Assembly: GCF_000025345.1 (NCBI RefSeq)
Contig: NC_013757.1
Span: forward strand, 1,426,001-1,490,000
DNA length: 64,000 nucleotides
Origin: Geodermatophilus obscurus DSM 43160
GTDB lineage: Bacteria; Actinomycetota; Actinomycetes; Mycobacteriales; Geodermatophilaceae
Reading direction: 5' to 3'
Shown here: positions 20,471 through 43,929 of the stretch, piece after piece
Position numbering within the stretch: position 1 is the first letter of the stretch
How the letters are laid out: every line of letters begins with the position of its first letter
Translations under genes and position numbers: made by a program
The notes under the pieces: model-generated
Databases searched by the model: none
What the model saw: only the letters and a program-made list of their open reading frames with translations
What the model was told of the DNA's origin: nothing

Positions 20471-21076
20471 GATGGGCATACGGCACACGATCCCCTGGGT
20501 CGTCAACCGATCTCGGCCGTCGCTGCTGCGGGTGGCGAAACAGACCCTCGCGCGGAGATCTGCTGCACCGCCCAGCCGTTGCCGTCCGGGTCGCGGAAGA
20601 ACACGAACCCGACGTTGTCGAGTGCCGTCCCGCCCTGACGCAGCGCATTCTCGTCGCTGCCCAACGCCTGGATCTCGCTGACCTCGACTCCGCGCTCGAC
20701 GAGCTGCGCGTGTGCCTCAGCGATGTCCGGGACGACCAGCTGGAGGCCCTGGAGGGAGCCTGGAGGCATGTGCGGAACGACGCCCTCGCCGATCACGACC
20801 GAGCAGCCGGAGCCCGGCGGCGTCAGCTGGACGAGCCGGTTGCCCGGGCCCGGAGGGCTGACGTCGTGGTCGACGTTGAAGCCCAGCTTGTCGGCGTAGA
20901 AGGCCTTGGCTCGGTCGACGTCGGCCACCGGCACGACCACGACCTCCAACGTCCAGTTCATGTGCAACTCCTCGACCCGCTCCTCGGCAGTAGTCCTGCC
21001 AGCACAGACCCGTCGCCGTACGAGAACTCATCGGTGCGCTCGTCATCCACCTCAGCGCCGTCCGCAAGACGAACGG
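20471..21076. repeat. Direct repeat, copy 1 (VOC module)
   Basis: This 606-bp block matches 30271-30876 with only about 11 substitutions counted by eye and no indels, a constant offset of 9,800 bp. It contains a whole VOC gene. The left end carries ACACGATCCC(C/T)TGGGTCG, which resembles the right half of the 75-bp element. The right end stops inside the first six bases (GAACGG) of element copy A. The duplication therefore coincides with element boundaries. Confidence 0.92.
20503..20961 (-). CDS. VOC (glyoxalase-fold) family protein, copy 1
   Basis: Encodes 152 residues from ATG 20961, with GAGGAG 6 bases upstream. It has the paired beta-alpha-beta-beta-beta modules of the vicinal oxygen chelate fold: MNWTLEVVVVPVADVDRAKAF and YADKLGFNVDHDV in the first, VVPDIAEAHAQLVERGVEV and FVFFRDPDGNGWAVQQ in the second. 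Family members include glyoxalases, dioxygenases and resistance proteins; nothing here fixes the reaction. It is nearly identical to 30303-30761, differing at only a few residues (V/I, D/H, H/R), so duplication is recent. Confidence 0.88.
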   Translation of the reverse strand: MNWTLEVVVVPVADVDRAKAFYADKLGFNVDHDVSPPGPGNRLVQLTPPGSGCSVVIGEGVVPHMPPGSLQGLQLVVPDIAEAHAQLVERGVEVSEIQALGSDENALRQGGTALDNVGFVFFRDPDGNGWAVQQISARGSVSPPAAATAEIG

Positions 21077-21144
21077 CGACCGGCGCACTGGAGGCCGCCG
21101 GTCAACGAGCTGGCCGCCGTCCCGCAGGGGATCGCCTTGCGGGG
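21071..21144 (+). repeat. 75-bp dispersed element, copy A
   Basis: 74 bp. The left end is GAACGGCGACCGGCGCAC and the right dyad starts at 21119 with GTCCCGCAGGGGATCGCC and ends TTGCGGGGC. It belongs to the same subfamily as copy J (shared ACCGGCGCAC, GGAGG and GCTGGC blocks). It lies between the start of VOC copy 1 and the end of the second VOC gene. Confidence 0.85.
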
Positions 21145-21760: not shown

Positions 21761-21865
21761 ACGGCGGACTGACACTGAGGTCCTCGTGCTGTCCCTGAAG
21801 GGCGGCCTCAGGGACGGTCGAGTTCCCTAGTCCTCCGCCGGGGGTGCGCCGCCGTGTCGTTCGCA

Positions 21866-22308: not shown

Positions 22309-22512
22309 TCACTTCGGCGGGATGTTGTGGTTGACGTGGAAGAGGTTCTCGGGGTCAAAGCGCCTCTTCGTGTCGACAAATTGCCGGTACTTCGTCGGTC
22401 CGAAGACCGTGCGGGCGTCGACCGCGCGGTGCCCCGCCAGCTCCTGACCCTGGAAGTTGACGTACTGGCCTCTGGTGGCGAGGGGCTCCATGTCGGTGGA
22501 CACGCCACGGAC
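22309..22512 (-). pseudogene. C-terminal fragment of a BBE-type FAD-linked oxidase
   Basis: About 67 residues (GQYVNFQGQELAGHR..., VFGPTKYRQFVDTKRRFDP, NLFHVNHNIPP) match the berberine-bridge-enzyme C-terminal domain of FAD-linked oxidases, which are normally 450-500 residues long. The upstream edge of the homology coincides with the left end of element copy C at 22513; beyond it the frame translates only element sequence. The remnant lacks the FAD-binding domain and cannot be active. Confidence 0.82.
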
Positions 22513-22587
22513 GAACCTTCTGCGGTACCTCGCGGTCAGGCCCGCCATGGGTAGTCGGGTTGTCCCGCAGGGATTCCCTTCGCGACG
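22513..22587 (+). repeat. 75-bp dispersed element, copy C
   Basis: 75 bp starting GAACCTTCTGCGGTACCTCG, with core GTCCCGCAGGGATTCCC at 22562. It is the closest relative of copy E, which lies 2.4 kb away in inverted orientation; the first 57 bases differ at about six positions. It exactly abuts the truncated oxidase fragment. Confidence 0.87.
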
Positions 22588-23730: not shown

Positions 23731-24113
23731 GCCGGGAGCCTAGGTGGCCACAGAGGCGGATAACCCATCATGAGAGCCCAGGAGTTGGTCTCGGTGGGGG
23801 TCGATGAGCGCTCACCGCAGCCCTCGTCCGGCGCTGACCGGTTCCTTGGCGCGGTGGTAGGCAGCGGCGTCATGCTCGGTGTAGACGTGCGCTGTCCCTA
23901 TAGCAGCGCTGGATGTCGGGGTCGCTGAACGCCTCGAAAGGCGGGAGGCGTTCCGGGGGCGCTACAGCCGCAGCAGCAGACGTTTCCCGCGCAGCGGATG
24001 GTCCGGAGCTGCCAGTGCGGCCTTCACGCGACGGGAGGCGACGCCCCTGCGAGGGCGTCGCACCGGTGGTGTGTCCCCTGAGGTCGTCTTCGTCACGGAT
24101 GGGACCGATTCGG
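23731..24113. other. Intergenic stretch without a recognisable gene
   Basis: About 380 bp between the ATPase start and element D. It contains the hairpin GCGACGCCC-n6-GGGCGTCGC near 24040-24062. Short open stretches such as EAFSDPDIQR on the minus strand do not extend into a gene. Promoters of the ATPase are expected at its left end, but no clear -35/-10 pair is visible. Confidence 0.4.
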
Positions 24114-24190
24114 GAACCTGCTACGGCGACGTTTGGGAGGGCAGGGGCAGCCGGTCGCCGATGTGTCTCGTAAGGGATCTCCTTGGGGTG
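24114..24190 (+). repeat. 75-bp dispersed element, copy D
   Basis: 77 bp. Left end GAACCTGCTACGGCGACG, core GTCTCGTAAGGGATCTCC from 24165. It lies 150 bp upstream of the serine recombinase start, in the place where small resolvases often have their own recombination site. Confidence 0.85.
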
Positions 24191-24340: not shown

Positions 24341-24970
24341 ATGACGGCGCTGTTGATCGGCTACGCCCGGGTGTCCACCGACGCCCAGGACCTGACCGCC
24401 CAGCACGTCGGGCTGCTCGCGCTCGGCGTCGACTCAGGTCGGATTTACGTCGACCACGGGCTGATCGGCACCAACCGCGAGCGCCCCGGCCTGCGCGAGG
24501 CGCTGGCCGCCTGCCGAGAGGGTGACACCTTGGTAGTGACCAAGCTCGACCGGCTGGCCCGCTCGCTGCCCGACGCCCGCGCCATCGCCGAAGAGCTCAC
24601 CCGCCGGCAGGTCCGGCTCAGCTTGGGCGGGTCGGTGTACGACCCGCACGACCCGGTCGGACGGCTGCTGTTCAACGTGTTGGCGATGGTCGCCGAGTTC
24701 GAAGCCGACCTGATCCGGCTGCGCACCCGCGAAGGCATGCGGGTGGCGAAGGCCAAGGGCAAGCTGCGCGGCAAGCAGCCCAAGCTCAACCCTCGCCAGG
24801 AGGCCCACCTGGTGGACCTCTACCGGCGGGGCGAGCACAGCACCGCCGAATTGGCCGACCTGTTCGGCGTCGCCCGCTCCACCGTCTACCGCGCCCTGGA
24901 ACGCGACCGCGCCCGCGGCCGTACGAACGGTCACCCGACGGCGGCCGTGATCGAGAGCATGAGCAGGTGA
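24341..24970 (+). CDS. Serine recombinase (resolvase/invertase family)
   Basis: Encodes 209 residues from ATG 24341, with GGAGG 6 bases upstream. The N-terminal catalytic domain has the nucleophile Ser in LLIGYARVSTDAQDLTAQ, then TLVVTKLDRLARS and the long E-helix region NVLAMVAEFEADLIRLRTREG. The C-terminal 45 residues hold a Hin-like HTH (HSTAELADLFGVARSTVYRAL). The size is that of Tn3-type resolvases and Hin/Gin invertases. No transposase of the Tn3 family is present, so it is not part of a complete Tn3 element. It is the only site-specific recombinase in the array and may act on the 26-bp dyads. Confidence 0.93.
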   Translation: MTALLIGYARVSTDAQDLTAQHVGLLALGVDSGRIYVDHGLIGTNRERPGLREALAACREGDTLVVTKLDRLARSLPDARAIAEELTRRQVRLSLGGSVYDPHDPVGRLLFNVLAMVAEFEADLIRLRTREGMRVAKAKGKLRGKQPKLNPRQEAHLVDLYRRGEHSTAELADLFGVARSTVYRALERDRARGRTNGHPTAAVIESMSR

Positions 24971-24997
24971 GCTCAGCCGCAGGCGAGAGCTGGGGTT

Positions 24998-25073
24998 GTC
25001 CCGCAGGCCCCGACTCTGCGGGACAAGCCGACTACCCATGCCGGGCCTGACCACGCGGTGCCGCAGAAGGTTC
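24998..25073 (-). repeat. 75-bp dispersed element, copy E (inverted)
   Basis: 76 bp on the minus strand, starting GAACCTTCTGCGGCACCG. Its core is a near-perfect palindrome, GTCCCGCAG at one end and CTGCGGGAC at the other (24998-25024). It is the inverted partner of copy C. It truncates the small gene at 25170-25316 on its right and lies 28 bp after the recombinase stop on its left. Confidence 0.87.
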
Positions 25074-25316
25074 CCCTGACGGGATAACGTCTCCGCCCTG
25101 CCGCCCAGGGTCTCGGTAGCCGCCGGAGTCCTCGACGACCGCGTATGGCGGGTCGTAGAACTGCTCGGTCTACGTCCGCGCGTGCAGGGCGCGAGCGATC
25201 TCCATGGCGCGGTCACTGACGCGCAGAACAGGAAACCCACGCGGGCGGCGGTGCGGACGAATCACCCTGCCCCGTCGCGCAAGGAGCCGGCGCTCCTCGT
25301 CCCAGGAGAGGCCCAT
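25074..25316 (-). pseudogene. Small hypothetical gene with internal stop, cut by element E
   Basis: From ATG 25316 the frame reads MGLSWDEERRLLARRGRVI, PVLRVSDRAMEIARAL and stops at 25170 (TAG). The same frame continues TEQFYDPPYAVVEDSGGYRDPG without interruption until it enters element E. Both halves look protein-like. I do not recognise the family. It appears to be a short gene damaged by a nonsense mutation and a lost 3' end. Confidence 0.45.
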
Positions 25317-26332: not shown

Positions 26333-26845
26333 GACCTGACCGCCGGTCGGAGGGGGCTGCCGAGCGTGACCCGTGACCTGGCGGACGGGCTACCGAAGGA
26401 CCTCACTCGGCAAGAGGCTGTACGGGTTGCAACTCATAGGGGACGTGGCGAGCACAAGTCGCTCCTTTGAGTTCCAAGGCAATACCAGATGATCAGCGTT
26501 CGCTGGAATTGAGTCGGGCGTCTACGAGGAGCTCGAGCCGGCTGTCGTCCACCACGTTGGTGTCGAGATTGGCGGCTCACGACCTTCGCTGCCCATGACC
26601 CAGGCTCCTGACGACGCCCGCAAGAGGATCGCCTTACCGAGCGCGGGACATCTCGGTCGTCAGTGAGCCCTGGATGTAGGTCATCACCTGTTGCGCGGCC
26701 GGATCGCCCAACCCTGACGCGAGATCGGCTGGGTCGTCATCGAAGCGCTCTTGGAACCCGCCGCAGTTCGCCCTGGACATCAGGCACTCAAGCCACCCAC
26801 TCGCCGACAGCTCCTCGCCCCACCGAAGCGAGGGAGACAAGGTCC
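26333..26845. other. Sparse intergenic region
   Basis: About 510 bp with less GC-biased sequence than the neighbours. A 68-codon frame on the minus strand (26634-26840, TTG start) ends AAQQVMTYIQGSLTTEMSRA and has protein-like composition but no family or ribosome-binding site. I do not call it as a gene. Nothing else is supported. Confidence 0.35.
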
Positions 26846-28474: not shown

Positions 28475-28926
28475 ATGAACAGCACGAACGACACCGCGGT
28501 CGTCGCGGGCCGGGCGTCGGGCCAGACCACCCGCCCCCACAGACTCCGCAGGCTCGTCGGCACCGGCGTCATCGCCACGCTCGGGGCGACGGCGGCCACC
28601 ACCCTCGCCGCTGCGCTTGCTCAGGCAGGCGGTGTCGACTTCGAGGTCTCCAATGATGGCCGGCCGATCCCGTTGGCTGGGTTCGCCGTGATGACCGGCT
28701 TCTTCCCGGTCGTGGGCATCGTCATCGTCGCCGCCCTTCGTCGGTGGAGCGCTCGCCCGTCCCGGCGATTCACGCAGACGGCCTGGTCGCTAACCGCGAT
28801 CTCGTTCGTTCCGCCCTCGACGCGACAGACCCCGCCACCACCACCGCCCTCCTCGGCCTACACCTGGTCGCCGCGACGGTGGTGATCCCTACCCTGGCGC
28901 GGAGCGTCCGCACTCGAACCGATTGA
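28475..28926 (+). pseudogene. Frameshifted DUF6069-like membrane protein
   Basis: ATG 28475 has a good ribosome-binding site (GAGGGAGGA). The frame gives VGTGVIATLGATAATTLAAAL, IPLAGFAVMTGFFPVVGIVIV and TAWSLTAISFVP (four-helix membrane protein style), then turns into poly-Pro. From about 28810 another frame continues SALDATDPATTTALLGLHLVAA and stops at 28926. This is the expected last helix of DUF6069-like proteins. One base shift is needed. Element F begins 2 bp after this stop. Confidence 0.7.
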
Positions 28927-28927
28927 C

Positions 28928-29002
28928 GAACCGACTACGGCGACGTCCGCGTACTTCGTGTGACCGCGGCGTCGGCGTCCGGTAGGGGATCCCCTGCGGG
29001 GC
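28928..29002 (+). repeat. 75-bp dispersed element, copy F
   Basis: 75 bp. Left end GAACCGACTACGGCGACG; the right dyad GTCCGGTAGGGGATCCCC plus TGCGGGGC ends at 29002. It starts 1 base after the stop codon of the DUF6069-like gene. Confidence 0.9.
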
Positions 29003-29102
29003 GGGGTCGGCGGCCAGTTGGGACTGCCTAAATCGTGCCGCTTGAGGTGGCAGCGGACCAACGCAGTCGAGTCCGCGCCTGACGACACGAGAAGGTGAGC
29101 GC

Positions 29103-29352
29103 ATGACCGACTCACCCCGGCAGGGCGACCGTGCCGGGTCGCTGCGGCTGGCCATCGTCGTGGGCGCCGACGAGGAGGCCTGCACCATCGTCGAGCAGAA
29201 CCAGCGGACCACGGTGCCCTACGCCCCGTCTTCCCCAGGCCGCGCGCGGGGCGGGTGGTCCCCGGCCACCCGGTGGCCCTCGCGGCCACGCCGGCGGCGG
29301 CGAGGTCGTGGTCTGGCGGTGGTTCGACGCCGTCGTTGTCGAGGACCCCTGA
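29103..29352 (+). pseudogene. Small doubly frameshifted gene remnant
   Basis: ATG 29103 (after GAGAAGGTGAGC) reads LRLAIVVGADEEACTIVEQN. A second frame supplies VVPGHPVALAATPAA and a third EVVVWRWFDAVVVEDP, ending at 29352. Joined, these make a plausible 80-residue protein, but two frameshifts are needed. The family is not recognised. It lies between element F and the nucleotidyltransferase gene. Confidence 0.45.
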
Positions 29353-29440
29353 CCGCAGGTGCAACCCGTCCCGGTCACCGATCCCCATCCGGCGCCGCGT
29401 TGGCGGCTGGGTGGTACCTCGGGTCGGTGAGGATGACCCG

Positions 29441-30268
29441 GTGCTCGGTAAACAGCGTCTCGTGGACCTGGCCGACCGCGTGGTCGAGGTATCCGGCGTG
29501 GTCGGCGTGGTGCTCGGCGGCAGTCGCGCTCGTGGCGAGCACACCGGGGACTCCGACGTCGACCTGGGCCTGTACTACCGCCGGCCCCTGGACGTCGACG
29601 CGCTGGGTGCGCTGGCGCGGGAACTCGCCGGCCCCGGTGCGCAGGTGACTGAGCCCGGGGCGTGGGGGCCGTGGGTCGACGGCGGAGCCTGGCTGCGGAT
29701 CGACGGCACGGCGGTGGACTGGATCTACCGGGACGTGGACCGGGTGCGCTCGTGCTGGGCCGCGGCCCAGCACGGCGAGTTCACCTTCCACACCCAGGTC
29801 GGCCACCCACTGGGCGTGCCGGACTTCGCCTACGCCGGAGAACTCGCACTCGCCCGAGTGTTGGCCGATCCCACCGGGGAGCTGGCCGCCCTGCGACAGC
29901 AGATGGCCACCTATCCGGTCACGCTCGGCCGAGCCCTGGTCGCGGGGTTGTGGGAGGCCGGCTTCACCCTGGACATCGCGCGCAAGGCGGTGTCACGGGC
30001 GGATACCGCCTACGTGGCCGGCTGCGTGTTCCGTGCGGTGCTGCTGTGCGCGCACGCCCTGCACGGATGGGCCGGGCGGTGGCTGGTCAACGAGAAGGGC
30101 GCGATCGCCTCGGCCGGGCGCCTACCCGCGGCACCACCGGGCTTCACCGTCCGAGCCCACGGCGTCCTGGCCCGTCTCGGGGACCGACCCGACCAGCTGC
30201 AGGCAGCGATTACCGCCGCTCAGGCGCTGCTCGACGACGTCCGCGCCACCTGCGAACCACCCCAGTAG
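29441..30268 (+). CDS. Nucleotidyltransferase-domain protein
   Basis: About 275 residues from GTG 29441; an upstream start at 29255 would overlap the preceding remnant. The polymerase-beta-like core is clear: GVVLGGSRARGEHTGDSDVD, with the GGS motif and the metal-binding Asp-x-Asp. A further acidic residue is expected in RIDGTAVDWIYRDVD. The remainder is helical (SWAAAQ..., LGRALVAGLWEAGFTLDIA, FRAVLLCAHALHGWAGRW) and resembles the substrate domain of aminoglycoside-type or orphan nucleotidyltransferases. Substrate unknown. It is followed directly by the second VOC module. Confidence 0.84.
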   Translation: MLGKQRLVDLADRVVEVSGVVGVVLGGSRARGEHTGDSDVDLGLYYRRPLDVDALGALARELAGPGAQVTEPGAWGPWVDGGAWLRIDGTAVDWIYRDVDRVRSCWAAAQHGEFTFHTQVGHPLGVPDFAYAGELALARVLADPTGELAALRQQMATYPVTLGRALVAGLWEAGFTLDIARKAVSRADTAYVAGCVFRAVLLCAHALHGWAGRWLVNEKGAIASAGRLPAAPPGFTVRAHGVLARLGDRPDQLQAAITAAQALLDDVRATCEPPQ

Positions 30269-30270
30269 CC

Positions 30271-30876
30271 GATGGGCGTACGGCACACGATCCCTTGGGT
30301 CGTCAACCGATCTCGGCCGTCGCTGCTGCCGGTGGCGAAACAGACCCTCGCGCGGAGATCTGCTGCACCGCCCAGCCGTTGCCGTCCGGGTCGCGGAAGA
30401 ACACGAACCCGACGTTGTCGAGTGCCGTCCCGCCCTGACGCAGCGCATTCTCGTCGCTGCCCAACGCCTGGATCTCGCTGACCTCGACTCCGCGCTCGAC
30501 GAGCTGCGCGTGTGCCTCAGCGATGTGCGGGACGACCAGTTGGAGGCCCTGGAGGGAGCCTGGAGGCATGTGCGGAACGACGCCCTCGCCGATCACGACC
30601 GAGCAGCCGGAGCCCGGCGGCGTCAGCTGGACGAGCCGGTTGCCCGGGCCTGGAGGGCTGATGTCGTGGTCGACGTTGAAGCCCAGCTTGTCGGCGTAGA
30701 AGGCCTTGGCTCGGTCGACGTCGGCCACCGGCACGACCACGACCTCCAACGTCCAGTTCATGCGCAACTCCTCGATCCGCTCCTCGGCAGTAGTCCTGCC
30801 AGCACAGACCTGTCGCCGTACGAGAACTCATCGGTGCGCTCGTCATCCACCTCAGTGCCGTCCGCAAGACGAACGG
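30271..30876. repeat. Direct repeat, copy 2 (VOC module)
   Basis: Second copy of the block at 20471-21076, same length, about 98% identical. Left flank: the nucleotidyltransferase stop two bases earlier. Right flank: sequence diverges six bases into element B. The module thus begins and ends at element-like sequences in both places. Confidence 0.92.
30303..30761 (-). CDS. VOC (glyoxalase-fold) family protein, copy 2
   Basis: Encodes 152 residues from ATG 30761, with GAGGAG upstream. It is the near-identical duplicate of 20503-20961 (few residue changes: HDI for HDV, VVPHI for VVPDI). Both copies keep the full reading frame, the ribosome-binding site and the fold, so both may be functional. 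No metal-dependent reaction can be assigned. Its flanks are described under the direct repeat. Confidence 0.88.
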   Translation of the reverse strand: MNWTLEVVVVPVADVDRAKAFYADKLGFNVDHDISPPGPGNRLVQLTPPGSGCSVVIGEGVVPHMPPGSLQGLQLVVPHIAEAHAQLVERGVEVSEIQALGSDENALRQGGTALDNVGFVFFRDPDGNGWAVQQISARGSVSPPAAATAEIG

Positions 30877-30944
30877 TCAGCGGCGACGTCCTCGGCGACC
30901 TGGCCGTCGAAGGCACCCGTCCCGCAGGGGATCCCTGTCCGGCC
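30871..30944 (+). repeat. 75-bp dispersed element, copy B
   Basis: 74 bp. It starts GAACGGTCAGCGGCGACG; the core GTCCCGCAGGGGATCCC begins at 30919. The six bases GAACGG are shared with copy A through the VOC duplication, after which A and B are different subfamily members. Confidence 0.88.
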
Positions 30945-31091
30945 TGACGGAGCGGCTCGATACGGGACTGGCCCGGTTGGAGGGCATCGACTGGTTCGGC
31001 CAAGTCGGCTGACCACGCCGTCACGCGCAACTGCCTTGACACGATGCGAGGGCCGTGCCTGGCTGGCGGCATATCCGACGAGGGGGCGGGC

Positions 31092-31499
31092 ATGCACGAG
31101 ACGATCGCCCGCCTGCGCGACGCCGTGAACGCCCACAACGTGGACGCTATGGTCGAGTTGATCGCGCCCGAGTACCGCAGCGAACAACCCGCGCATCCCA
31201 ACCGGGGCTTCGGCGGCAAGGATCAGGTGCGCAAGAACTGGAGCACCCTGTTCGCCGGAGTCCCGGACCTCAGGGTCGACGTGCGCGCCTATCTGGACGA
31301 TGGGACGACGTCCTGCTCGGAGTGGGAGTTCCTCGGCCATCACGCCGACGGGTCGGACTTCAACGAGCGGGGGGTCGTCATCTTCGGCCTTCGCGACGAC
31401 GGCCTGATCACCTGGGGACGGCTGTACATGGAGATCGTCGAGCAGGGCGGTGCGGACATCGACGAGACGATGCGCCAGACCGCGAGAGTGCCGGACTGA
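31092..31499 (+). CDS. SnoaL/NTF2-like domain protein
   Basis: Encodes 135 residues from ATG 31092 (MHETIARLRDAVNAHNVDAM) with a G-rich ribosome-binding site. The cone-shaped NTF2 fold is indicated by VELIAPEYRSEQPA, FGGKDQVRKNWSTLFAGVPDL, and the beta-strands TSCSEWEFLGHHADGS and GLITWGRLYMEIVEQGG. Members include polyketide cyclases and many uncharacterised proteins. Asp/His residues are in typical pocket positions but no reaction can be given. It is a short stand-alone gene between elements B and G. Confidence 0.86.
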   Translation: MHETIARLRDAVNAHNVDAMVELIAPEYRSEQPAHPNRGFGGKDQVRKNWSTLFAGVPDLRVDVRAYLDDGTTSCSEWEFLGHHADGSDFNERGVVIFGLRDDGLITWGRLYMEIVEQGGADIDETMRQTARVPD

Positions 31500-31512
31500 C
31501 CGCGCTGCAGGC

Positions 31513-31790
31513 TCAGAGCCAGGCGGCGAATGAGGGCACCTGTCCGGAGAGGCCCGAGGCGTCGCCACGGGTCAGCCAGGCGACGATGGCCGACACCGCC
31601 CCCTCGAGCTTCGTACTTCCGGATCCCCAGGTCCGGTCGGTGTCGGTCGCGACGAGCGTGACGTCGGTTGCCTCGAGGCGTTCAGTGCAGGTGGCAACGC
31701 CGTCGTCGACGAGCCCGGCCTAGAGGTCGGGCGGCAGGCCGGCAATCATGAGTCCGGCGCGCAGATCGACGCCGTGAATTTGCTGTCCGA
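31513..31790 (-). pseudogene. C-terminal fragment of a mycothiol-dependent (MDMPI-like) protein
   Basis: The minus-strand frame reads QQIHGVDLRAGLMIAGLPPDL, an in-frame TAG at 31720-31722, then AGLVDDGVATCTERLEATDV and AVSAIVAWLTRGDASGLSG before stopping at 31513. This resembles the C-terminal domain of maleylpyruvate isomerase-like/DinB-fold proteins. The N-terminal half is missing, and homology ends at the left edge of element G (31796). The internal stop probably replaced a Trp codon. Confidence 0.68.
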
Positions 31791-31804
31791 ATGGGGAACC
31801 CTTA

Positions 31805-32713
31805 GAAGACGTTTCGAAAGTAGGTCGTCGGGCTCTGGTCGCCGGCGACGAGGCGGCGCAGGCTGCCGGGCATGTCGTCGTCGGTGTCTTCCCCGCCGCC
31901 GCGGCTGATCAGTGACGAGCTGTGGGCGCTGGTCGAGCCGCTGATCCCGCCTCCGCCGCCGGCGGTGCATGGCCGCACCGGGCGGCCCCGCACCGGTGAT
32001 CGGGACGTGCTCGAAGGCATCGCCTTCGTGCTGTCCACCGGCATCGGCTGGACCAAGCTGCCCACCGAGCTGGGCTACGGCTCGGGTGTGACGTGCTGGC
32101 GGCGGATGCGCGAGTGGGCCGAGGCCGGGCTCTTCGACCAGCTGCACCGGGCGGTGCTGGACCGGCTCGGCGAACAAGGGCAGCTGGACTGGTCCCGGGC
32201 CAGCCTGGACTCGGTCAGCGTCCGGGCGAAAAGGGGGGTGAGCTGACCGGGCCGAACCCCACCGACCGCGGCAAGGCCGGCAGCAAGTATCACCTGCTCG
32301 TCGACGCCGGCGGGCTGCCGCTCAACGTGCTCGTCTCGGGCGCGAACCGACACGACAGCATGCTGGTCGAGCCGATCCTGGACTCGATGCCGGCGATCCG
32401 CCGTGGCGGCCGCGGTCACCCGCGCCGGCGGCCGGTCAAGCTGCACGGCGACAAGGGCTACGACGTTCCGCGGGTGCGCCGCTACCTACGCCGCCGCGGG
32501 ATCACCGCCCGGATCGCCCGCATCGGCCGGGACTCCAGCGCCCGACTGGGCCGGCACCGCTGGGTCGTGGAGCGCACTCTCGGCTGGCTGCTGTCCTACA
32601 AACGCCTCGCGCTGCGCTACGACCGCACCGCCACAACGATCACCGCGCTGGCCCGACTGGCCGTCACCCTGATCTGTGCCCGCCGCCTAACGACGAACTA
32701 TTGAAACGTCTTC
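31805..32713 (+). mobile_element. IS5-family insertion sequence (IS427-like)
   Basis: A 909-bp element with terminal inverted repeats beginning GAAGACGTTTC at both ends and flanked by a TTA direct repeat (31802-31804 and 32714-32716). The three-base TNA-type duplication and two overlapping transposase frames are typical of the IS427 group of IS5. It carries only the transposase. It is inserted in element G and appears intact. Confidence 0.92.
31872..32704 (+). CDS. IS5-family transposase, made by -1 frameshift
   Basis: The first frame (31872-32246) encodes the N-terminal part: SDELWALVEPLIPPPPPAVH, GIAFVLSTGIGWTKLPTELG, and LDSVSVRAK with the first catalytic Asp. The second frame continues from about 32230: GGELTGPNPTDRGKAGSKYH, SGANRHDSMLVEPIL (second Asp), and RHRWVVERTLGWLLSYKRLA (catalytic Glu). 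The change of frame occurs at an A4G6 run (GCGAAAAGGGGGG), a credible programmed -1 slip site used by IS427-type elements. The complete DDE transposase would be about 277 residues. Confidence 0.88.
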
Positions 32714-32927
32714 TTAGCGGCGACGTTCGAGCGGTCCCTGTGGTCCCGCGCCGGTGTCCCTCAGGGGATCCCTGTGCGGTGATGGCGGACTGAGGCATCT
32801 GACCTGTCTCGGGAGGGGGCTTCACGACACCTGGGACACCGAACTGCTGCGGCGCGCAACCGTCCGGTGTGCAGGACCAGCAGCGCTGAGTCGCGCGTAC
32901 GCCGGGTGATGGGTGTATGGCTGATGC

Positions 32928-35507
32928 GTGAGTGATCGGGGAACCGATTTCTTTATCAGTCACGCCGGCCGAGACACCGGGTGGGCGGAGTGGCTGGCCT
33001 GGCAGCTGCAGCAGGCCGGCTACAGCGTCGAGCTGGACGTGTGGGACTGGGTGCCGGGTGAGGACTTCGTTGCCCGCATGCAGGAGGCACTGCAGCGGGC
33101 CGATCGGCTGCTGGCGGTGTGCACCTCGGCCTACTTCTCGAGCACCTTCAGCGGCGCGGAGCTGCGCGCGGCCTTCGCGCAGCAGTCAGCGGGGCGGATC
33201 GTGCCCGTGCTGGTTGAACCGGTCACCCTGCCTACGCTGTACGCGCCACTGATAATCGTGGATCTGACCGGCCTGGATGAGGCCACCGCGGCCGCCCGGT
33301 TACGGGCCCGGCTGGCCGGTGGCCGGCCGGTGAACGCGCCGCCGTTCCCGAGGACCGAGCCGGTGCCTGCGGAGAAGCCGGGGTTCGCCGGTGCGCTACC
33401 GGCGGTGTGGAAGGTGCCGCCGCGCAATCCGCGGTTCACCGGCCGGGACGGCATGCTCACCGAGCTGCGCCGACGGCTGCACGCCGGCGAGGGCACGCTG
33501 GTGGTGCAGGCGCTCTACGGGCTGGGCGGGGTGGGCAAGACCCAGCTGGCCATCGAGTACGCACACCGGTTCGCCGCCGACTACGACCTCATCTGGTGGA
33601 TCGACGCCGAACAACCAGTGCTGATCCCCGAACAGCTCGCTCGGCTCGCCGAGAGCCTGGACCTTGCCGCCGGGTCGACGGTGGCCGCCACCGTCGACCG
33701 GCTGCTCGCCGAGCTGCGCCACCGGGACCGTTGGCTGCTGGTGTTCGACAACGCCGAACGGCCGGCCGACATCGCCGCCTACCAGCCCGGCGGGCCAGGA
33801 CATCTGCTGATCACCTCCCGCAACCCCGGCTGGGGTGCCCTCGGTGGCCGGCTGGAGGTCGACGTGTTGAACCGGGCGGAGACGATCGCGCTGCTGCGGG
33901 CCCGGATCCCGGGCCTGGGTGAGGAGCTGGCCGACAAGCTCGCCGCCGAGCTGGGTGACCTGCCGCTCGCCGCGGCGCAGGCCGTCGGCTACCTGGAGCA
34001 GACCGACCTGCCCGCGGCGGATTACCTGCGCCGCTTTCGCACCCGCCGGGCCGGCCTGCTGGCCCGCGGCGACGTGGTTGGCTACTCGGGGCGGCTCGAC
34101 ACCGCCTGGGCGCTGTCCCTGGAGCGACTCAGCTGTGAGGACCCGGCCGCGGTCCAGCTGCTGGGACTGGCCGCCTTCCTCGCCCCAGAACCCATCCCGC
34201 TCCACCTGTTCACCGAGCACTCCGCGTTGCTGGAGGTGCCGCTGCGCAGCACCGCCGCCGACCCCGACGCGCTGGCCGACACCGTCGGCGCGCTGGTCGG
34301 CTACTCCCTGGCCCGCCGCCACCCCGGCGGCTTCCAGATCCACCGGCTCGTGCAGGCGGTGATCCGCCAGCAACTTCCGCTCGACCGACAGCAGACCACC
34401 GCCCAGCGGGTGGTCGCGCTGCTCGCCGCCGCCGCCCCCACCAACCCGGACGATGACGATCCGGCCAGCTGGCCCACCTACGCCCAGCTCGCCCCGCACA
34501 TGCTGGCCACTGCCCCCCTGAGTGACCGCTCATCCGCCGGCCGGCGACTCGTTCTGGACACCATCCGTTATCTGCAGGCCCACGGCGACATTCACGCCAG
34601 CCGGACTGTTGGCGAACCGCTGCTTGACCGCTGGCGGGCGGTCCTCGGCCCTGACCATCCCGATACCTTGACCGCCGCGACCAGGCTCACCAGCGCCCTG
34701 GTTCACCTGGGCGAGGCGGAGCCGGCCCGCGCCCTGGGGGAAGACACCGTGCAGCGCTGCCGCCGGGTGTTCGGCCCAGACCACCGGATCACTCTAGATG
34801 CGGCGAGCGGCCTGACCCTCGCCCTGGGCCTGCTGGGTGAGGCGGAACCGGCCCGCGCCCTGGGGGAAGACACCGTGCAGCGCAGCCGCCGGGGGTTCGG
34901 CCGCGACCATCCGGTCACCCTATGGGCGGCGACCGCCCTGACCCTCGCCCTGGTCTTGGTGGGTGAGGCGGAGCCGGCCCGCGCCCTGGGGGAGGACACC
35001 CTGCAGCGCTGCCGCCGGGCGCTGGGCCCGGACCACCCCAGAACCCTATGGGTGGCGACCGCCCTGACCCTCGCCCTGGTCTGGGTGGGTGAGGCGGAGC
35101 CGGCCCGCGCCCTGGGGGAGGACACCGTGCAGCGCTGCCGCCGGGCGCTGGGCCCGGACCACCCGATCACCCTGTGGTTGGCGACCGGCCTGACCCTCGC
35201 CCTGGCCCGGCTGGGCGAGGCGGAGCCGGCCCGCACCCTGGGGGAGGACACCGTGCAGCGCTGCCGCCGGGCGCTGGCCCCGGACCACCCGACCACCCTG
35301 ATGGCGGCGACCGGCCTGACCCTCGCCCTGGCCCGGCTGGGCGAGGCGAAGGCGGCCCGCGCCCTGGGGAGGGACGCCCTGCAGCGCAGCCGCCGGGCGC
35401 TCGGCGCGGACAATCCGGTCACGCTGTACCTGACCCAGGCCGCCAGCAGCGGCCAGCTCCAGCTCCGTGACGATGCCGCTGAGGACCACCCGAGTCAGCC
35501 GCTGTGA
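32928..35507 (+). CDS. TIR-NB-ARC-TPR protein (STAND NTPase, NLR-like)
   Basis: Encodes 859 residues from GTG 32928. Residues 1-135 form a TIR domain (DFFISHAGRDTGWAEWLAWQ; the likely NADase Glu is in FSGAELRAAF near residue 78). An NB-ARC ATPase follows: Walker A GLGGVGKTQLAIEYA at 198-205, Walker B WLLVFDNAE near 268, and LPLAAAQAVGYLEQT corresponding to the GLPLA motif. From about residue 560 there are six 42-residue TPR units (GEAEPARALGEDTVQRCRRA-type). Such proteins are known or suspected antiphage NLRs in which TPR sensing triggers NAD depletion by TIR. It lies between elements G and R as cargo. Confidence 0.92.
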   Translation: MSDRGTDFFISHAGRDTGWAEWLAWQLQQAGYSVELDVWDWVPGEDFVARMQEALQRADRLLAVCTSAYFSSTFSGAELRAAFAQQSAGRIVPVLVEPVTLPTLYAPLIIVDLTGLDEATAAARLRARLAGGRPVNAPPFPRTEPVPAEKPGFAGALPAVWKVPPRNPRFTGRDGMLTELRRRLHAGEGTLVVQALYGLGGVGKTQLAIEYAHRFAADYDLIWWIDAEQPVLIPEQLARLAESLDLAAGSTVAATVDRLLAELRHRDRWLLVFDNAERPADIAAYQPGGPGHLLITSRNPGWGALGGRLEVDVLNRAETIALLRARIPGLGEELADKLAAELGDLPLAAAQAVGYLEQTDLPAADYLRRFRTRRAGLLARGDVVGYSGRLDTAWALSLERLSCEDPAAVQLLGLAAFLAPEPIPLHLFTEHSALLEVPLRSTAADPDALADTVGALVGYSLARRHPGGFQIHRLVQAVIRQQLPLDRQQTTAQRVVALLAAAAPTNPDDDDPASWPTYAQLAPHMLATAPLSDRSSAGRRLVLDTIRYLQAHGDIHASRTVGEPLLDRWRAVLGPDHPDTLTAATRLTSALVHLGEAEPARALGEDTVQRCRRVFGPDHRITLDAASGLTLALGLLGEAEPARALGEDTVQRSRRGFGRDHPVTLWAATALTLALVLVGEAEPARALGEDTLQRCRRALGPDHPRTLWVATALTLALVWVGEAEPARALGEDTVQRCRRALGPDHPITLWLATGLTLALARLGEAEPARTLGEDTVQRCRRALAPDHPTTLMAATGLTLALARLGEAKAARALGRDALQRSRRALGADNPVTLYLTQAASSGQLQLRDDAAEDHPSQPL
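34670..35420 (+). repeat. 126-bp tandem repeats encoding TPR units
   Basis: Six copies of a 126-bp (42-codon) unit lie in the 3' part of the TIR-NB-ARC gene. The block GGCCCGCGCCCTGGGGGA recurs near-identically every 126 bp. The last copies are more divergent. Nearly identical DNA repeats allow copy-number change by slippage or recombination, so the sensor length may vary between strains. Confidence 0.88.
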
Positions 35508-35670
35508 GCGTTCCATGGCTGCCAGGGCCCTGGATCCTTCCGCGGGCACGGCCGCCTCGGCCCTACATCTGATGGGCCGAGCGCTGTCCTAGCGGCGTGT
35601 CGCTCTGGCGCTTTCTGCAAGCGAAGGGCCAGGACTACCGCCACGCGGTCGCGACACGCACCAGCTCGGC

Positions 35671-35744
35671 GTTCCGTCCACGGCGAGTGGACACCATCCC
35701 GAGCAGACCGCACCCCGTGTCCCACAGACGATCCCCAAACGGTG
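35671..35744 (+). repeat. Degenerate 75-bp element, copy R (core only)
   Basis: The core GTCCCACAGACGATCCCC, starting at 35719, matches the family dyad except for a few bases and is followed by ACGGTG as in other copies. The left end at the expected position (35671) reads GTTCCG and is not conserved. It follows the TIR-NB-ARC gene by about 160 bp. Confidence 0.55.
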
Positions 35745-35802
35745 ACACGCGGGCACCTGCAACTGGCGGGTCAGCCCTGATGAGCCTCTAACCTCGGCCT
35801 TC

Positions 35803-36471
35803 GTGTGTGACTCGGTTGAGCAGCCCGCGGATCTGCAACTCGTTCGGGCGTCCTATGACCGGGTAGCCGACAACTACGTTGCGATGAACGTCGGTGACCT
35901 GGTGCCGGCCCCGTGGCTGCGCGCCGCCCTTGGAGCGTTCGCTGAAGATGTCCGCGCCCTCGGGCCAGTGCTCGACGTCGGCTGTGGCCCGGGAACGGTC
36001 ACCGCCCACCTCGCGGGGCTGGGCCTCGACGTGTCCGGTGTCGACCTGTCGCCGCGGATGATCGCGCACGCCCGCCGGCTGCACCCTGCACTGCGGTTCG
36101 CCATCGCCTCCGCCACCGACCTCCACCTGGCCGAGGCATCCCTCGGTGGTGTCCTTGGCTGGTGGTCGCTGTTCAACCTGCCCCGCACCGTGCTGCCCGA
36201 CGTGCTCGCCTCGTTCGCCCGGGCGCTGGTTCCTGGTGGGCAGCTCCTGGTGGGAACGCACGTAGGCGACGGCGACATCGAGCGCACCGAGGTCTACGGC
36301 ATGCCCGTCACCTGGACGACCCATCTGTGGCAGCCCCAGCAACTGGCCGGCCTGCTTTCTCAGGCCGGCCTCCAGCCGGTTGCCGAGCTGCGGCTGCCGC
36401 CGACTCCTGCAGCTCCATCGGCCCCCGCTCTCCCGGCCCAGGTGGTCCTCGCCGCTCGGCGGCCAAGCTGA
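35803..36471 (+). CDS. Class I SAM-dependent methyltransferase
   Basis: Encodes 222 residues from 35803. The SAM-binding motif is PVLDVGCGPGTVTAHLAGLG, with the motif II acidic loop GVDLSPRMIAHARRL and the post-I region FAIASATDLHLAEASLGGV. VLASFARALVPGGQLLVG is the usual motif III context. The YDRVADNYVAMN start is typical of small-molecule methyltransferases. The substrate is unknown. It overlaps nothing and precedes the phosphoribosyltransferase by 77 bp in the same direction. Confidence 0.9.
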   Translation: MCDSVEQPADLQLVRASYDRVADNYVAMNVGDLVPAPWLRAALGAFAEDVRALGPVLDVGCGPGTVTAHLAGLGLDVSGVDLSPRMIAHARRLHPALRFAIASATDLHLAEASLGGVLGWWSLFNLPRTVLPDVLASFARALVPGGQLLVGTHVGDGDIERTEVYGMPVTWTTHLWQPQQLAGLLSQAGLQPVAELRLPPTPAAPSAPALPAQVVLAARRPS

Positions 36472-36548
36472 CCCCCACCCGACTGGCTCGGTCAGCGATC
36501 CCGCTGCGGACCGACTCCGGGTCAGGCGGCAGCGCTGCCCGAAGATGG

Positions 36549-37085
36549 ATGCTGATGACTACTGCTGCGCATGACGCGCTGATGACCCACTTCCGGTGGG
36601 AGGGCGGCCACGCCGACATGTGGCGGGTCTTCGCCGACGCTGAGGCGTTCGCCGCGGTGCTCGACGGTCTGGTTGAGCCCTGGCGCGGCCGCGGAGTCAC
36701 CCGGGTGGTCGGGATCGAGTCGCGCGGCTTCGTCCTCGGCGGAGCCACCGCAGTCGCCCTGGGGGTCGGCTTCGTGGCGATTCGCAAGCCCGGAGGCCTA
36801 CTTCCCGAACCGAAGCACGTCGTCGACTCGGACGCCGACTACCGCGGACGTCGCCACCAGCTCCGGATGCAGGGCGTCCTGAGTCCTGAGGACAGGGTCG
36901 TGCTGGTCGACGACTGGGCCGAGCAGGGCAGCCAAGCTTGGGCCGCGCGCCGACTGGTCGAATCCGCCGGCGCGACGTTTCTCGGGGTTGCCCCCCTCGT
37001 CGATCAGCTCCCGGCTGCAGCGAGAGGCCGCCTGGGTGACGTCACGGCGGTCGCCCGAGCCGAGGAGCTTGGACCGGCCCGGTAG
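36549..37085 (+). CDS. Adenine-phosphoribosyltransferase-like protein
   Basis: About 178 residues from ATG 36549, or 176 from 36555; no strong ribosome-binding site. The PRTase core is clear: VVGIESRGFVLGGATAVALG, GFVAIRKPGGLLPEPKHVV, and the PRPP loop RVVLVDDWAEQGSQAWAARR. The usual PRPP loop (DDxxATGGT) is altered to DDWAEQGSQ, so specificity or activity may differ from true Apt. It likely acts on a purine base or has a regulatory role. Element H begins 1 base after its stop codon. Confidence 0.85.
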   Translation: MLMTTAAHDALMTHFRWEGGHADMWRVFADAEAFAAVLDGLVEPWRGRGVTRVVGIESRGFVLGGATAVALGVGFVAIRKPGGLLPEPKHVVDSDADYRGRRHQLRMQGVLSPEDRVVLVDDWAEQGSQAWAARRLVESAGATFLGVAPLVDQLPAAARGRLGDVTAVARAEELGPAR

Positions 37086-37086
37086 C

Positions 37087-37161
37087 CAACCCGCTACGGC
37101 GACGTTCAAGAAGGCCGGAGCAGCCGGCCGCCGGTGTCTCGCAGGGGATTCCTTGTGGGAC
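37087..37161 (+). repeat. 75-bp dispersed element, copy H
   Basis: 75 bp. Left end (c)AACCCGCTACGGCGACG; core GTCTCGCAGGGGATTCC, ending TTGTGGGAC. It directly abuts the phosphoribosyltransferase stop on the left and the truncated end of the DUF6933-like gene on the right. Confidence 0.9.
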
Positions 37162-37612
37162 CTCAGGGCGCGTCAGGTTGCGAGCCGGGTTGTCCAGTCT
37201 CTTGAAGTCCGGCGATGAGAGCCGCGAGTTCCTGCATGGGGTCGTGGCCAGCCGTATGGACAGGCGCATCAGATCGAGGTTCTCCGCACGGTCGAGGTCG
37301 GCGAGGTAGGCGAACTCGTTCATCACGCCGACCAGGCTGCGGTTGGCCGTAGCGGCCAGCCGGTGATCAAGGGCCTGGACCCGTTCGGCCTCGATCAGTT
37401 GCGCGGGGACTCGGTGCGCGGATAGCAGTTCAGCGAGCGCGTCCGGAAATCGGGTTAGCCGCGTCCTCGCAGGGGTCAGCGGCATGACGAGCGGCAGCAG
37501 CGTCAGCTCGTTGACCAACAGCGCGCGGGCGGCGCCACCGCAGCACGGTGGCATACCAGGCCCCGAGCACTGTCGTCGACGTCTCGCCCAGCGTGACAGC
37601 CGGTCCCGGCAC
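37162..37612 (-). pseudogene. Frameshifted DUF6933-like gene, 3' end cut by element H
   Basis: From 37612 one frame reads TLGETSTTVLGAWYATVLRW. A second frame continues ALLVNELTLLPLVMPLTPAR, FPDALAELLSAHRVPAQLI and NRSLVGVMNEFAYLADLDRA. This is the order found in DUF6933-type proteins. At least one frameshift separates the two parts. At the C-terminus the frame runs without a stop into element H, translating it as PEVPQGIPCETPAAG. The gene has thus lost its own stop codon at the element edge. Confidence 0.68.
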
Positions 37613-38640: not shown

Positions 38641-38808
38641 GTCCTTGGGTGGGTCGTCAGGGCCACCCAGGGACCTGTCAACCTTGCGCATTCTGCTCCG
38701 CATGCGTCGTATCCACCTGCGGCGCTCCTTCACGCGGAGCGACACGTCGTCGACCGCATGGCGCATTTCAGCAGTTCCATTCGCGGCCACGATGCCGTCT
38801 CGATGGAG

Positions 38809-38882
38809 GAACGTCTACTGACACGCCAGAGGCGGTCGGCGGAGTAGCTGGACGGTGTCCGGCAGGGGATGCCTGGCGGTGA
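38809..38882 (+). repeat. 75-bp dispersed element, copy I
   Basis: 74 bp. Left end GAACGTCTACTGACACGCC (diverged); the core GTCCGGCAGGGGATGCC starts at 38857 and is followed by TGGCGGTG. It lies between the ThDP fragment region and the winged-helix gene. Confidence 0.75.
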
Positions 38883-39910: not shown

Positions 39911-39984
39911 GAACCGCCAGTGGCGAGTTCGTCGTAGCTAGATTGCCTGCGGGACAGACGGCAAGGGCTGACCACTAGCTCGTC
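39911..39984 (+). repeat. Candidate degenerate 75-bp element, copy P
   Basis: The left end GAACCGCCAGTGGCGAGTTC resembles the family start, and GGCAAGGGCTGACC appears near the expected core. A second, inverted core-like sequence (GTCCCGTAGGCGGATCGGC on the minus strand) lies at 39994-40016. Both are diverged; the call rests on position and partial matches. Confidence 0.4.
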
Positions 39985-40019
39985 AGGCACAGCGGTAGCC
40001 GATCCGCCTACGGGACTCG

Positions 40020-41278: not shown

Positions 41279-41421
41279 GGGCCCTTGACGCGCGGAAGGA
41301 GTGCTCGCCCCTGATCGTCGATGGACGTGAGGCGAGCCGCGGCATCGCGGCAGTATCGGGCGTGCGGCGACCGACTGGTCCCGGCAACGCTGTTTGCGTC
41401 ACGTTGCCATCACCGCAAGGA

Positions 41422-41496
41422 AAACGGCTACCGGCGCACCGGAGGACTGCCAGGTGACCAGCTGGCTGCCGTCCCGCAAGGGATCCCTCAACGGCC
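41422..41496 (+). repeat. 75-bp dispersed element, copy J
   Basis: 75 bp. Left end AAACGGCTACCGGCGCACC; the core GTCCCGCAAGGGATCCC starts at 41471. It shares several middle blocks with copy A. It lies between the XRE promoter region and the 3' end of the reductase. Confidence 0.85.
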
Positions 41497-41543
41497 ACGA
41501 GATCGTTGGGTGCCCGAGCCCGCGCCGATCCGAGGTCGGGCAT

Positions 41544-42107
41544 TCACCGCCTGGCCTCGTACCTGGTCAGGAGCACGCCGTCGGGAAACGTCCGGGTCTC
41601 CACCAGGCTCAGGTTCACCCAGTTGTCCAGGGTTGTGAAGAACGGCGTGCCGCCGCCCACCAGGACCGGGTGGGTGACGATCGCGTACTCGTCGATCAGC
41701 CCGGCCCGCATGGCCGCCGCGGCGAGGGTGGCGCCGCCGACGTCCATGGGACCGCCATCCTCAGTCTTGAGCCGGGTGATCTCGGTGACCGCGTCGCCGG
41801 TGACCAGGCGGGCGTTCCAGTCGACCGCGCTGGTCGTCGAGGAGAACACCACCTTCGGCATGTCCCGCCAGCGGCGGGCGAACTGGATCTGCGCCGGTGT
41901 GGCGCCAGGCTGCTGGTCGGCGGTCGGCCAGTGGGAGCTCATCGTCTCCCACAGTCTGCGCCCGTACAGCGCCAGGCCCGTCGCCCCCACCCGGTCGGAC
42001 CACCACTGAAACAGCTCGTCGCTCGGCACGCTCCAGCCGAGGTCGTCGCCGGGCGCGGCGATGTAGCCGTCCACGCTCAGGTTCATGCGAAAGGTCAGTG
42101 TCCGCAT
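41544..42107 (-). CDS. Dihydrofolate-reductase-family (RibD-C) protein
   Basis: Encodes 187 residues from ATG 42107. The RibD-C fold is indicated by LTFRMNLSVDGYIAAPGDDL, LALYGRRLWETMSSHW, KVVFSSTTSAVDWNARLV, DVGGATLAAAAMRAGLIDEY and VTHPVLVGGGTPFF. It is probably an NADPH-binding reductase of unknown substrate, not folA. It is a complete relative of the truncated copy at 16455-16727. It lies between elements J and K. Confidence 0.88.
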   Translation of the reverse strand: MRTLTFRMNLSVDGYIAAPGDDLGWSVPSDELFQWWSDRVGATGLALYGRRLWETMSSHWPTADQQPGATPAQIQFARRWRDMPKVVFSSTTSAVDWNARLVTGDAVTEITRLKTEDGGPMDVGGATLAAAAMRAGLIDEYAIVTHPVLVGGGTPFFTTLDNWVNLSLVETRTFPDGVLLTRYEARR

Positions 42108-42229
42108 GGCGGAGCCTCCCGTGAGTCGGTATTCGGCTGATCAGACGAACACGGCGCGGAAAATTGATCGGTCAGACCACACCGAGGGCCGGTTGACCAC
42201 CGCGCCAAGCGGATGCTGCGTACGGAGGG

Positions 42230-42303
42230 GAACCCGCTACGGCACCTTCCCGGCGGCTCGATCCTCGCGGCGCCGGGGTCCCGCAGGGGATCCGGCTGCG
42301 GGA
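42230..42303 (+). repeat. 75-bp dispersed element, copy K
   Basis: 74 bp. Left end GAACCCGCTACGGCACC; the core GTCCCGCAGGGGATCCGG starts at 42278 and ends CTGCGGGA. It ends 16 bp before the stop codon of the minus-strand hydrolase. Confidence 0.9.
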
Positions 42304-43150: not shown

Positions 43151-43235
43151 CCGACGATCCTCGCAGGGCTCGAGTCCGGTCGTATCGCCCTCGATCCGGT
43201 ACAGCCCGCCGGGTTGGTGTCGGGACTCCGTCGGC

Positions 43236-43309
43236 GAACCGGCTACGGCTGCCTCCGGCCAACTGGACGGACCGGCAGGGAGCGTCCCATAGAGGATCCC
43301 CTAACGGAC
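43236..43309 (+). repeat. 75-bp dispersed element, copy L
   Basis: 74 bp. Left end GAACCGGCTACGGCTGCC; the core GTCCCATAGAGGATCCCC starts at 43284 and ends AACGGAC. It is the last copy seen; none was found to the right of 43.3 kb. Confidence 0.87.
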
Positions 43310-43742: not shown

Positions 43743-43929
43743 TCCACCCGACCCGCAGCCCTGTCCCGCGAGGCGAGGGCTCACCGAGCACTCGGCCGAC
43801 AGGTCGACGGCGCGGGAGGCGCGTCCGCAGGACCCGCCCGGTCACTGTTTCCCGCAGAGGGGCGTCAACCGGGACGGGTGTGGAGCAGTCCTCGTCGGCG
43901 CAGACCCACGGGCCCGGCCCGTCCAGAGG

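What the first reader, a model, noticed from the sequence alone, without database searches (positions are those of the whole stretch)
28924..37162. Elements begin within 1-2 bases of stop codons and mark exact edges of truncated genes
F begins 1 base after the DUF6069-like stop and H begins 1 base after the phosphoribosyltransferase stop. The BBE oxidase fragment is cut at the left end of C, the MDMPI-like fragment at the left end of G, and the DUF6933-like gene loses its stop exactly at the right end of H. This is the relation expected if genes enter or leave as units with the element as junction, as in cassette systems.
Basis: partly seen in the sequence, partly recalled or inferred. Interest (0 to 1): 0.85.

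Follow-up and report, generated by a model that had tools for sequence, protein, structure and literature searches.

The report
Gene modules shuffled at resolvase-like sites
A desert-soil bacterium and its relatives carry strings of unrelated genes joined end to end at copies of a short DNA sign resembling the cutting sites of resolvase enzymes, and genes are swapped between strains at those signs, much as integrons do but apparently with a different kind of enzyme.

Summary
The elements are real: 12 copies (ten strong) lie between 21.0 and 43.3 kb of the window. The ten best hits of the whole genome (recognised by its size as Geodermatophilus obscurus DSM 43160) are all here. Relatives of the element occur in 38 of 112 genomes of the family.

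Gene segments are shared between strains in different neighbourhoods, and the shared DNA stops at the two arms of the element far more often than at shifted positions. One truncated gene was mapped: the BBE oxidase fragment ends at the GAAC core of the element at 22511. An empty locus without the array exists in G. poikilotrophus.

Each arm is an imperfect palindrome of about 28 bp around GA(A/T)C. Half-sites learned here recur upstream of related Tn3-type serine resolvases on plasmids (8 of 16 significant), and such a resolvase gene sits inside the array. No integron integrase was found, and several attC features fail.

Best reading: a gene-module array exchanged at resolvase-type (res-like) sites, working like an integron but not one. 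Which enzyme acts is inferred.

The stop-codon rule is weak (5 of 51 and 6 of 57 within 20 bp), and the lost DUF6933 stop is better explained by an internal deletion.

The parts
21069..21143 (+). element eA (left core GAAC, right core GATC)
24112..24189 (+). element eC, upstream of the resolvase gene
24341..24970 (+). Tn3-type serine resolvase (PF00239 + HTH_7), candidate recombinase
24997..25086 (-). inverted element (partial model match on the minus strand) closing the resolvase module
26614..26643 (-). solo site; the segment shared with L051 starts at 26628
28926..29001 (+). element F
29367..29396 (+). weak solo site where homology to L043 starts
   Evidence: score at noise level
20471..21076 (.). 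VOC gene module, first copy
30271..30876 (.). VOC gene module, 98% copy of 20471-21076; right edge inside the next element
30869..30943 (+). element e30
31796..31804 (+). left end of element G, before the insertion sequence
31805..32713 (+). insertion sequence with TTA target repeats, inside element G (not part of the system)
32714..32783 (+). remainder of element G
35669..35740 (+). diverged element; edge of the methyltransferase module
37085..37160 (+). element H
38806..38878 (+). diverged element
39928..40017 (-). possible inverted diverged element (two sites)
   Evidence: weak
41420..41495 (+). element e41, edge of the RibD_C module
42228..42302 (+). element e42
43234..43308 (+). element e43
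43848..43876 (+). terminal site next to conserved chromosome; a very similar site ends the arrays of L212 and L237
   Evidence: by eye; its scan score (11.6) is at noise level

Best explanation
This is a mobile gene-module array. Unrelated accessory genes are joined end to end at copies of an imperfectly palindromic site of about 28 bp, TGTCCCGCAAG-NN-GA(A/T)C-CTTGCGGGACA. The 75-bp 'element' is two such sites with centres 59-62 bp apart. Shown: modules differ between strains and many of their edges fall on the GA(A/T)C cores of the two arms. Inferred: the exchange is conservative site-specific recombination by a Tn3-type small serine recombinase, of which one intact copy lies inside the array, acting on res-type sites. 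So it works like an integron cassette array or pdif modules, but with resolvase-type sites. New modules may form when a core sequence inside a chromosomal gene is used, as in the BBE gene.
For: Element family: 73 hits at 18 bits or more (training copies included) against 1 in reversed sequence over 770,879 bp; 126 (one added by hand) against 3 over 81 loci.
Location: the ten best hits of the own genome lie at 1.447-1.469 Mb.
Exchange at the arms: distinct elements with breaks 18, 10, 17 of 110; 44 shifted controls mean 1.5, 1.5, 2.3, max 4, 4, 12.
Single cases: VOC duplication; L039 17587 vs L053, L079 12837 vs window 25039, e30 vs L143; BBE gene cut at 22516.
Empty locus in G. poikilotrophus, other arrays at the same place in L212 and L237.
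Link to serine resolvases: half-sites trained only on these elements match upstream of 8 of 16 plasmid resolvases at p<=0.05 (100 shuffles each; coding control 2 of 16). 7 of 16 best sites start at -135 to -141, six of those with p<=0.05.
Resolvase (E<=1e-30, fragments included) in 14 of 112 family genomes, 12 of which have elements (38 of 112 overall).
Cores GAAC (37 of 44) and GATC (35 of 44) share GA while the two bases before it vary, which suits a 2-bp overlap.
Against: 26 of 38 element-bearing genomes lack a close resolvase. Eight of 16 plasmid resolvases gave no significant site. A second group of right-side breaks, 25 of 117, lies at offsets 108-155, outside the element, and is not explained. 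Site length varies (about 26-30 bp, by eye), and a third res subsite was not identified. At the BBE junction the outer half is plain gene sequence with only the GAAC core in common, so a full site was not used there. The left end of the array (18457) shows no site. Tn3 resolvases normally favour directly repeated sites on one molecule (recalled), so intermolecular insertion needs relaxed control. The exact crossover base is not resolved beyond the core.
Confidence: 0.6

Rival explanations
1. A divergent integron cassette array without integrase (CALIN): elements are attC sites recombined by an IntI-like tyrosine recombinase acting on the folded single strand.
For: AAC invariant in the nine window copies, two arms that can pair imperfectly with extrahelical bases (read by eye), one gene per module in several cases, array layout.
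Against: No TIGR02249 match over cut-off in 26 genus genomes. Pairing within an element is no better than between shuffled elements. Element orientation is mixed in 10 of 13 loci with more than two elements. Exchange occurs at both arms. The base after GA follows the right-hand module, not AA|C (read by eye).
Confidence: 0.12
2. Sites of an unidentified tyrosine recombinase (Xer/pdif-like modules): two inverted arms around a 6-8 bp spacer.
For: Palindromic simple sites, mixed orientation, module exchange; tyrosine recombinases lie within 10 kb of some arrays (G009, G011, G022).
Against: The spacer is not conserved (the two bases before GA and the A/T after it vary), although partners must match over 6-8 bp (recalled). 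I saw no one recombinase shared by the arrays, but compared them only by eye; those of G000 (about 31 kb from the array) and G022 look alike. Half-sites match serine resolvase upstream sites.
Confidence: 0.15
3. A family of small transposable repeats (MITE or TIME-like) inserting between genes; module differences arise from transposition and deletion, not site-specific recombination.
For: Modules have inverted-repeat ends; one element joins plain gene sequence with only GAAC in common; elements also sit singly in some genomes.
Against: Genes move with their flanking half-sites, and solo sites without the middle part are seen by eye (L046, L079, L088). Target duplications were not searched for.
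Confidence: 0.1

Closest known systems
Resolvase-mediated module shuffling at res sites (Kholodii 2001, known here only from citations in PMC9501444 and PMC12217951; CinH-RS2 on Acinetobacter plasmids, passage in PMC9501444)
   Same: Small serine recombinase, res-type sites, exchange of DNA between sites of related elements.
   Different: Here many sites are strung in chromosomal arrays of mostly unrelated accessory genes, with one or no resolvase.
Res sites of Tn3-family transposons (layout from passages of PMC12217951)
   Same: Dyad-symmetric subsites, resolvase gene downstream in the resolvase module, centre spacing of 59-62 bp, inside the stated 4-7 turns.
   Different: Two subsites seen, not three; the spacing is not a whole number of turns; sites are repeated between other genes; a tnpA transposase was not searched for.
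Integron cassette arrays / CALIN (passages of PMC9024848)
   Same: Gene modules joined at short repeated sites, array at a locus, gain and loss of modules.
   Different: No IntI found, no canonical boxes, both arms exchange, mixed orientation, no sign of covariation.
pdif (dif) modules of Acinetobacter plasmids (search listing of PMC6449649, PMC12907356)
   Same: Genes bounded by short palindromic sites in either orientation.
   Different: The sites match serine resolvase sites; similarity to dif was not tested.

Membership tests
Integron cassette array | integron integrase (TIGR02249 above cut-off) in the genome | tested here: not met
   0 of 26 genus genomes over cut-off
Integron cassette array | attC R box RYYYAAC/GTTRRRY (recalled) with crossover in one R box | tested here: not met
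   alignment, by eye: AAC conserved but the bases before it vary; breaks at both arms
Integron cassette array | hairpin conserved by compensating changes | tested here: inconclusive
   485 of 609 cells paired, 682 of 1000 shuffles as high; invariant columns cannot speak either way
Integron cassette array | attC sites all in one orientation within an array | tested here: not met
   10 of the 13 loci with more than two elements are mixed (threshold 16 bits, weak copies included); the window, L054 and L128 are uniform
Tn3-type res site / serine resolvase system | resolvase with serine recombinase catalytic domain and HTH | tested here: met
   PF00239 2-144/145, PF02796; for the window copy
Tn3-type res site / serine resolvase system | dyad-symmetric site of the same half-site type upstream of the resolvase gene | tested here: met
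   8 of 16 plasmid homologues at p<=0.05, 8 not, by eye, 7 of 13 family copies (distant L170 left out)
Tn3-type res site / serine resolvase system | three subsites of about 120 bp in all | tested here: inconclusive
   two subsites with centres 59-62 bp apart in nine window copies; a third was not searched for systematically
Tn3-type res site / serine resolvase system | binding and strand exchange by the resolvase | not testable with these tools
   needs the bench
pdif modules | XerC/XerD binding arms similar to dif | not tested
   dif of this species was not compared
TIME / Tn3-derived miniature elements | terminal inverted repeats of Tn3-family type with 5-bp target repeats | not tested
   not searched for; passages of PMC4133298 read

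The most novel reading that the evidence does not exclude
A serine-recombinase counterpart of the integron: a gene-capture system widespread in Geodermatophilaceae in which resolvase-type sites have become cassette junctions. It takes up pieces of chromosomal genes at GAAC cores, exchanges modules between strains and keeps them at hotspot loci.
Probability: 0.4. Interest if true: 0.9.

Novelty: new variant of a known kind. Interest (0 to 1): 0.73.

Why it matters
Integrons are described as extremely rare in Actinobacteria (PMC9024848, passages read). If resolvase-type sites do the same job there, cassette-style gene exchange has evolved on a second, unrelated enzyme class, and the accessory genes of these desert bacteria can be listed module by module. 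The claim is directly testable with one small enzyme and one short site.

Tried and rejected
attC reading: the element arms can pair with extrahelical bases, which first suggested integron attC; rejected, with no support. A dedicated tyrosine recombinase beside arrays: none shared was seen, by eye only. Site search on a Pseudonocardia plasmid: no excess over reversed sequence (7 against 10 at threshold 12), so no array was shown there. The simple-site scan of the window at low threshold is noisy (56 against 27 at 10 bits; 26 against 2 at 14 bits), so weak solo sites are used only where a breakpoint falls on them. Stop-codon rule: weak. Elements beyond the family: 21 of 397 order genomes match, all in the own family (stricter filters). 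One search printed only breaks at 90% identity or more, and its output was cut, so not all of its 68 cases were read. The 16 plasmid resolvases are 16 of the 30 rows listed, which itself stopped at 5000 records.

Full report
WHAT WAS CHECKED. The window is bases 1,426,001-1,490,000 of a single-contig genome of 5,322,497 bp, the size given for Geodermatophilus obscurus DSM 43160 (PMC3035280, passages read). The finding says that ~75-bp elements sit next to stop codons and at the edges of truncated genes.

THE ELEMENTS ARE REAL. Nine copies align with invariant AAC, GTC and other columns. A sequence-only model built from them places its ten best hits in the own genome at 1.447-1.469 Mb, i.e. window 21-43 kb; the next is a 28-bit hit at 0.737 Mb (only 150 of 22,748 candidates were scored there). 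A second model gives 12 hits at E<=1e-5 in the own genome, 11 of them in this locus. With a weight matrix trained on 44 elements, 73 hits, training copies included, were found at 18 bits or more in 770,879 bases, against 1 in reversed sequence. With 81 loci and a threshold of 16 bits it was 126 (element G added by hand) against 3. One copy, G, is split by an insertion sequence with TTA repeats, so its left edge is partly an IS edge.

DISTRIBUTION. 17 of 26 genus genomes have hits, 38 of 112 in the family, in 6 of 12 genera, and 21 of 397 in the order, all in the own family. Hits are often clustered, about 1-5 kb apart, but single copies also occur. The 12 window copies share one orientation, with one partial inverted copy at 25014-25072; in 10 of 13 loci with more than two elements the orientation is mixed.

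GENES MOVE WITH THEIR EDGES ON THE ARMS. All-against-all comparison of array loci shows the same gene segments in different neighbourhoods (matches of 78% identity or more and 150 bp or more were used for the counts). Offsets are counted from two bases before the left GAAC. Among breaks where the similar DNA lies on the right, 20 of 117 fall at offsets -12 to 11 and 37 of 117 at 48 to 71. Among breaks where it lies on the left, 23 of 77 fall at -12 to 23. A further 25 of the 117 fall at 108 to 155, outside the element; this group is unexplained. Counted as distinct elements out of 110, the numbers at the arms are 10, 18 and 17, against means of 1.5, 1.5 and 2.3 and maxima of 4, 4 and 12 in 44 shifted controls. 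Ends come from related pairs and are not fully independent.

SINGLE CASES. A VOC gene occurs twice in the window at 98%; identity begins abruptly at 20471/30271 and ends in the GAACGG of the next elements. L039 17587 and L053 share DNA up to GCCGAAC and then differ. L079 12837 and window 25039 share up to GGGGAAC. The segment after e30 matches L143 from GATCCCTG onward with no element before it. The RibD segment (window 41470-42233) follows different left arms in L054 and L040, and what look by eye like solo sites without the middle part in L046 and L079. The crossover therefore lies near the GA(A/T)C core of either arm.

TRUNCATED GENES. BBE oxidase: the C-terminal BBE domain is complete, and the homologue in G009 (724-aa open frame) matches window 22309-22516 and no further. 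The match ends on the last base of the GAAC core (22513-22516), where the G009 gene itself reads GAAC in the same orientation, so the true edge could be a few bases inside. A second short match (21835-21941, 107 bp, 78%) at the end of the ABM-like ORF lies in the same order, so neighbouring DNA probably came along. The outer half of that junction is gene sequence, not a full site. DUF6933: the homologous segment ends at 37143 or 37147, at H's right core (37147-37150), but the missing stop is explained by a deletion of about 34 bases near 37234-37241 relative to L282 and L283. MDMPI: not supported by Pfam.

STOP CODONS. Over 108 distinct elements a facing stop lies within -10 to 20 bp of the core in 5 of 51 (left) and 6 of 57 (right), against 24 of 896 within 20 bp for random intergenic points. 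The control counts only left neighbours. So the rule in the title is an enrichment, not a law.

EMPTY LOCUS. Of 52 loci around the neighbouring phytochrome-like gene, 34 also show the left flank of the array, and 32 of these hold no element at 18 bits. In G. poikilotrophus (L188) the sequences matching window 18457 and 43909 are 24 bases apart. G. africanus (L212) and Geodermatophilus sp. DSM 45219 (L237) have two elements each there. The right ends of the three arrays carry very similar sites, by eye CCCGCAGAGGG(G)CGTYMACCGGGAC, in the window at 43848-43876; its scan score alone is at noise level. The left end at 18457 has no recognisable site.

WHAT THE SITE IS. Each arm is an imperfect palindrome, TGTCCCGCAAG-NN-GA(A/T)C-CTTGCGGGACA. 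The core is GAAC in 37 of 44 left arms and GATC in 35 of 44 right arms; the two bases before it vary. A Tn3-type serine resolvase (PF00239, HTH_7) lies at 24341-24970, between element eC and an inverted element. The same unit is seen in L039, L051 and L055, with a broken reading frame in the last two. Homologues at 70-82% identity head the list from actinobacterial plasmids. In 16 of these, a half-site matrix trained only on the Geodermatophilus elements finds a paired site upstream at p<=0.05 in 8, against 2 of 16 in coding controls. Seven of the 16 best sites start at -135 to -141; one of these seven has p 0.09. Examples are CGTCTCCTAAGGGGAACCCCCACCGGGACA and CGTCCCACATGGGGATCCCGTTGCGGGCCG. 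Tn3 res sites have dyad-symmetric subsites with site I and II centres usually 5 turns apart, range 4-7, and cleavage at the central 2 bp (PMC12217951, passages). Element centres here are 59-62 bp apart in nine window copies, not a whole number of turns.

WHAT IT IS NOT SHOWN TO BE. No integron integrase passes the cut-off in 26 genomes. Pairing of the two arms is not better within elements than between them. [quoted passage not shown]

ENZYME. In 14 of 112 family genomes a close resolvase or a piece of one is found, 12 of them with elements, while 26 element-bearing genomes lack one. The resolvase is therefore a candidate, not proven. It could act in trans, have been lost, or be a passenger module itself.

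LITERATURE. Shuffling by resolvases is a known idea (Kholodii 2001, cited in PMC9501444 and PMC12217951; the paper itself was not seen). The searches listed under Tried and rejected returned no description of such arrays in Geodermatophilaceae.

Noticed in passing
window 31805-32713: An insertion sequence (inverted ends, TTA target repeats, transposase-like ORFs in two frames; label from recall, no Pfam run) sits inside element G, close to the left core.
   Followed up: partly
window 32928-35507: A module gene encodes TIR and TPR domains and a sub-threshold NB-ARC match, with PADLOC matches to TIR and SEFIR defence proteins: a possible immune gene carried as a module.
   Followed up: partly
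L188, L212, L237 next to the phytochrome-like gene (window 43969-46410): The place beside this gene is a hotspot: no elements in many relatives, different arrays in three species.
   Followed up: partly
L057 9556-15019 (genome 1.4996-1.505 Mb): A 400-aa tyrosine integrase with a large relaxase-like gene (label by eye) lies about 10 kb beyond the window, suggesting an integrated conjugative element.
   Followed up: no
L051 6782: In this relative an inverted element cuts the DUF6069-like gene about 200 bases earlier than element F does in the window.
   Followed up: no
offsets 108-155 to the right of elements, 81 loci: A second cluster of similarity breaks (25 of 117) lies 30-80 bases beyond the right arm; possibly another feature there.
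   Followed up: no
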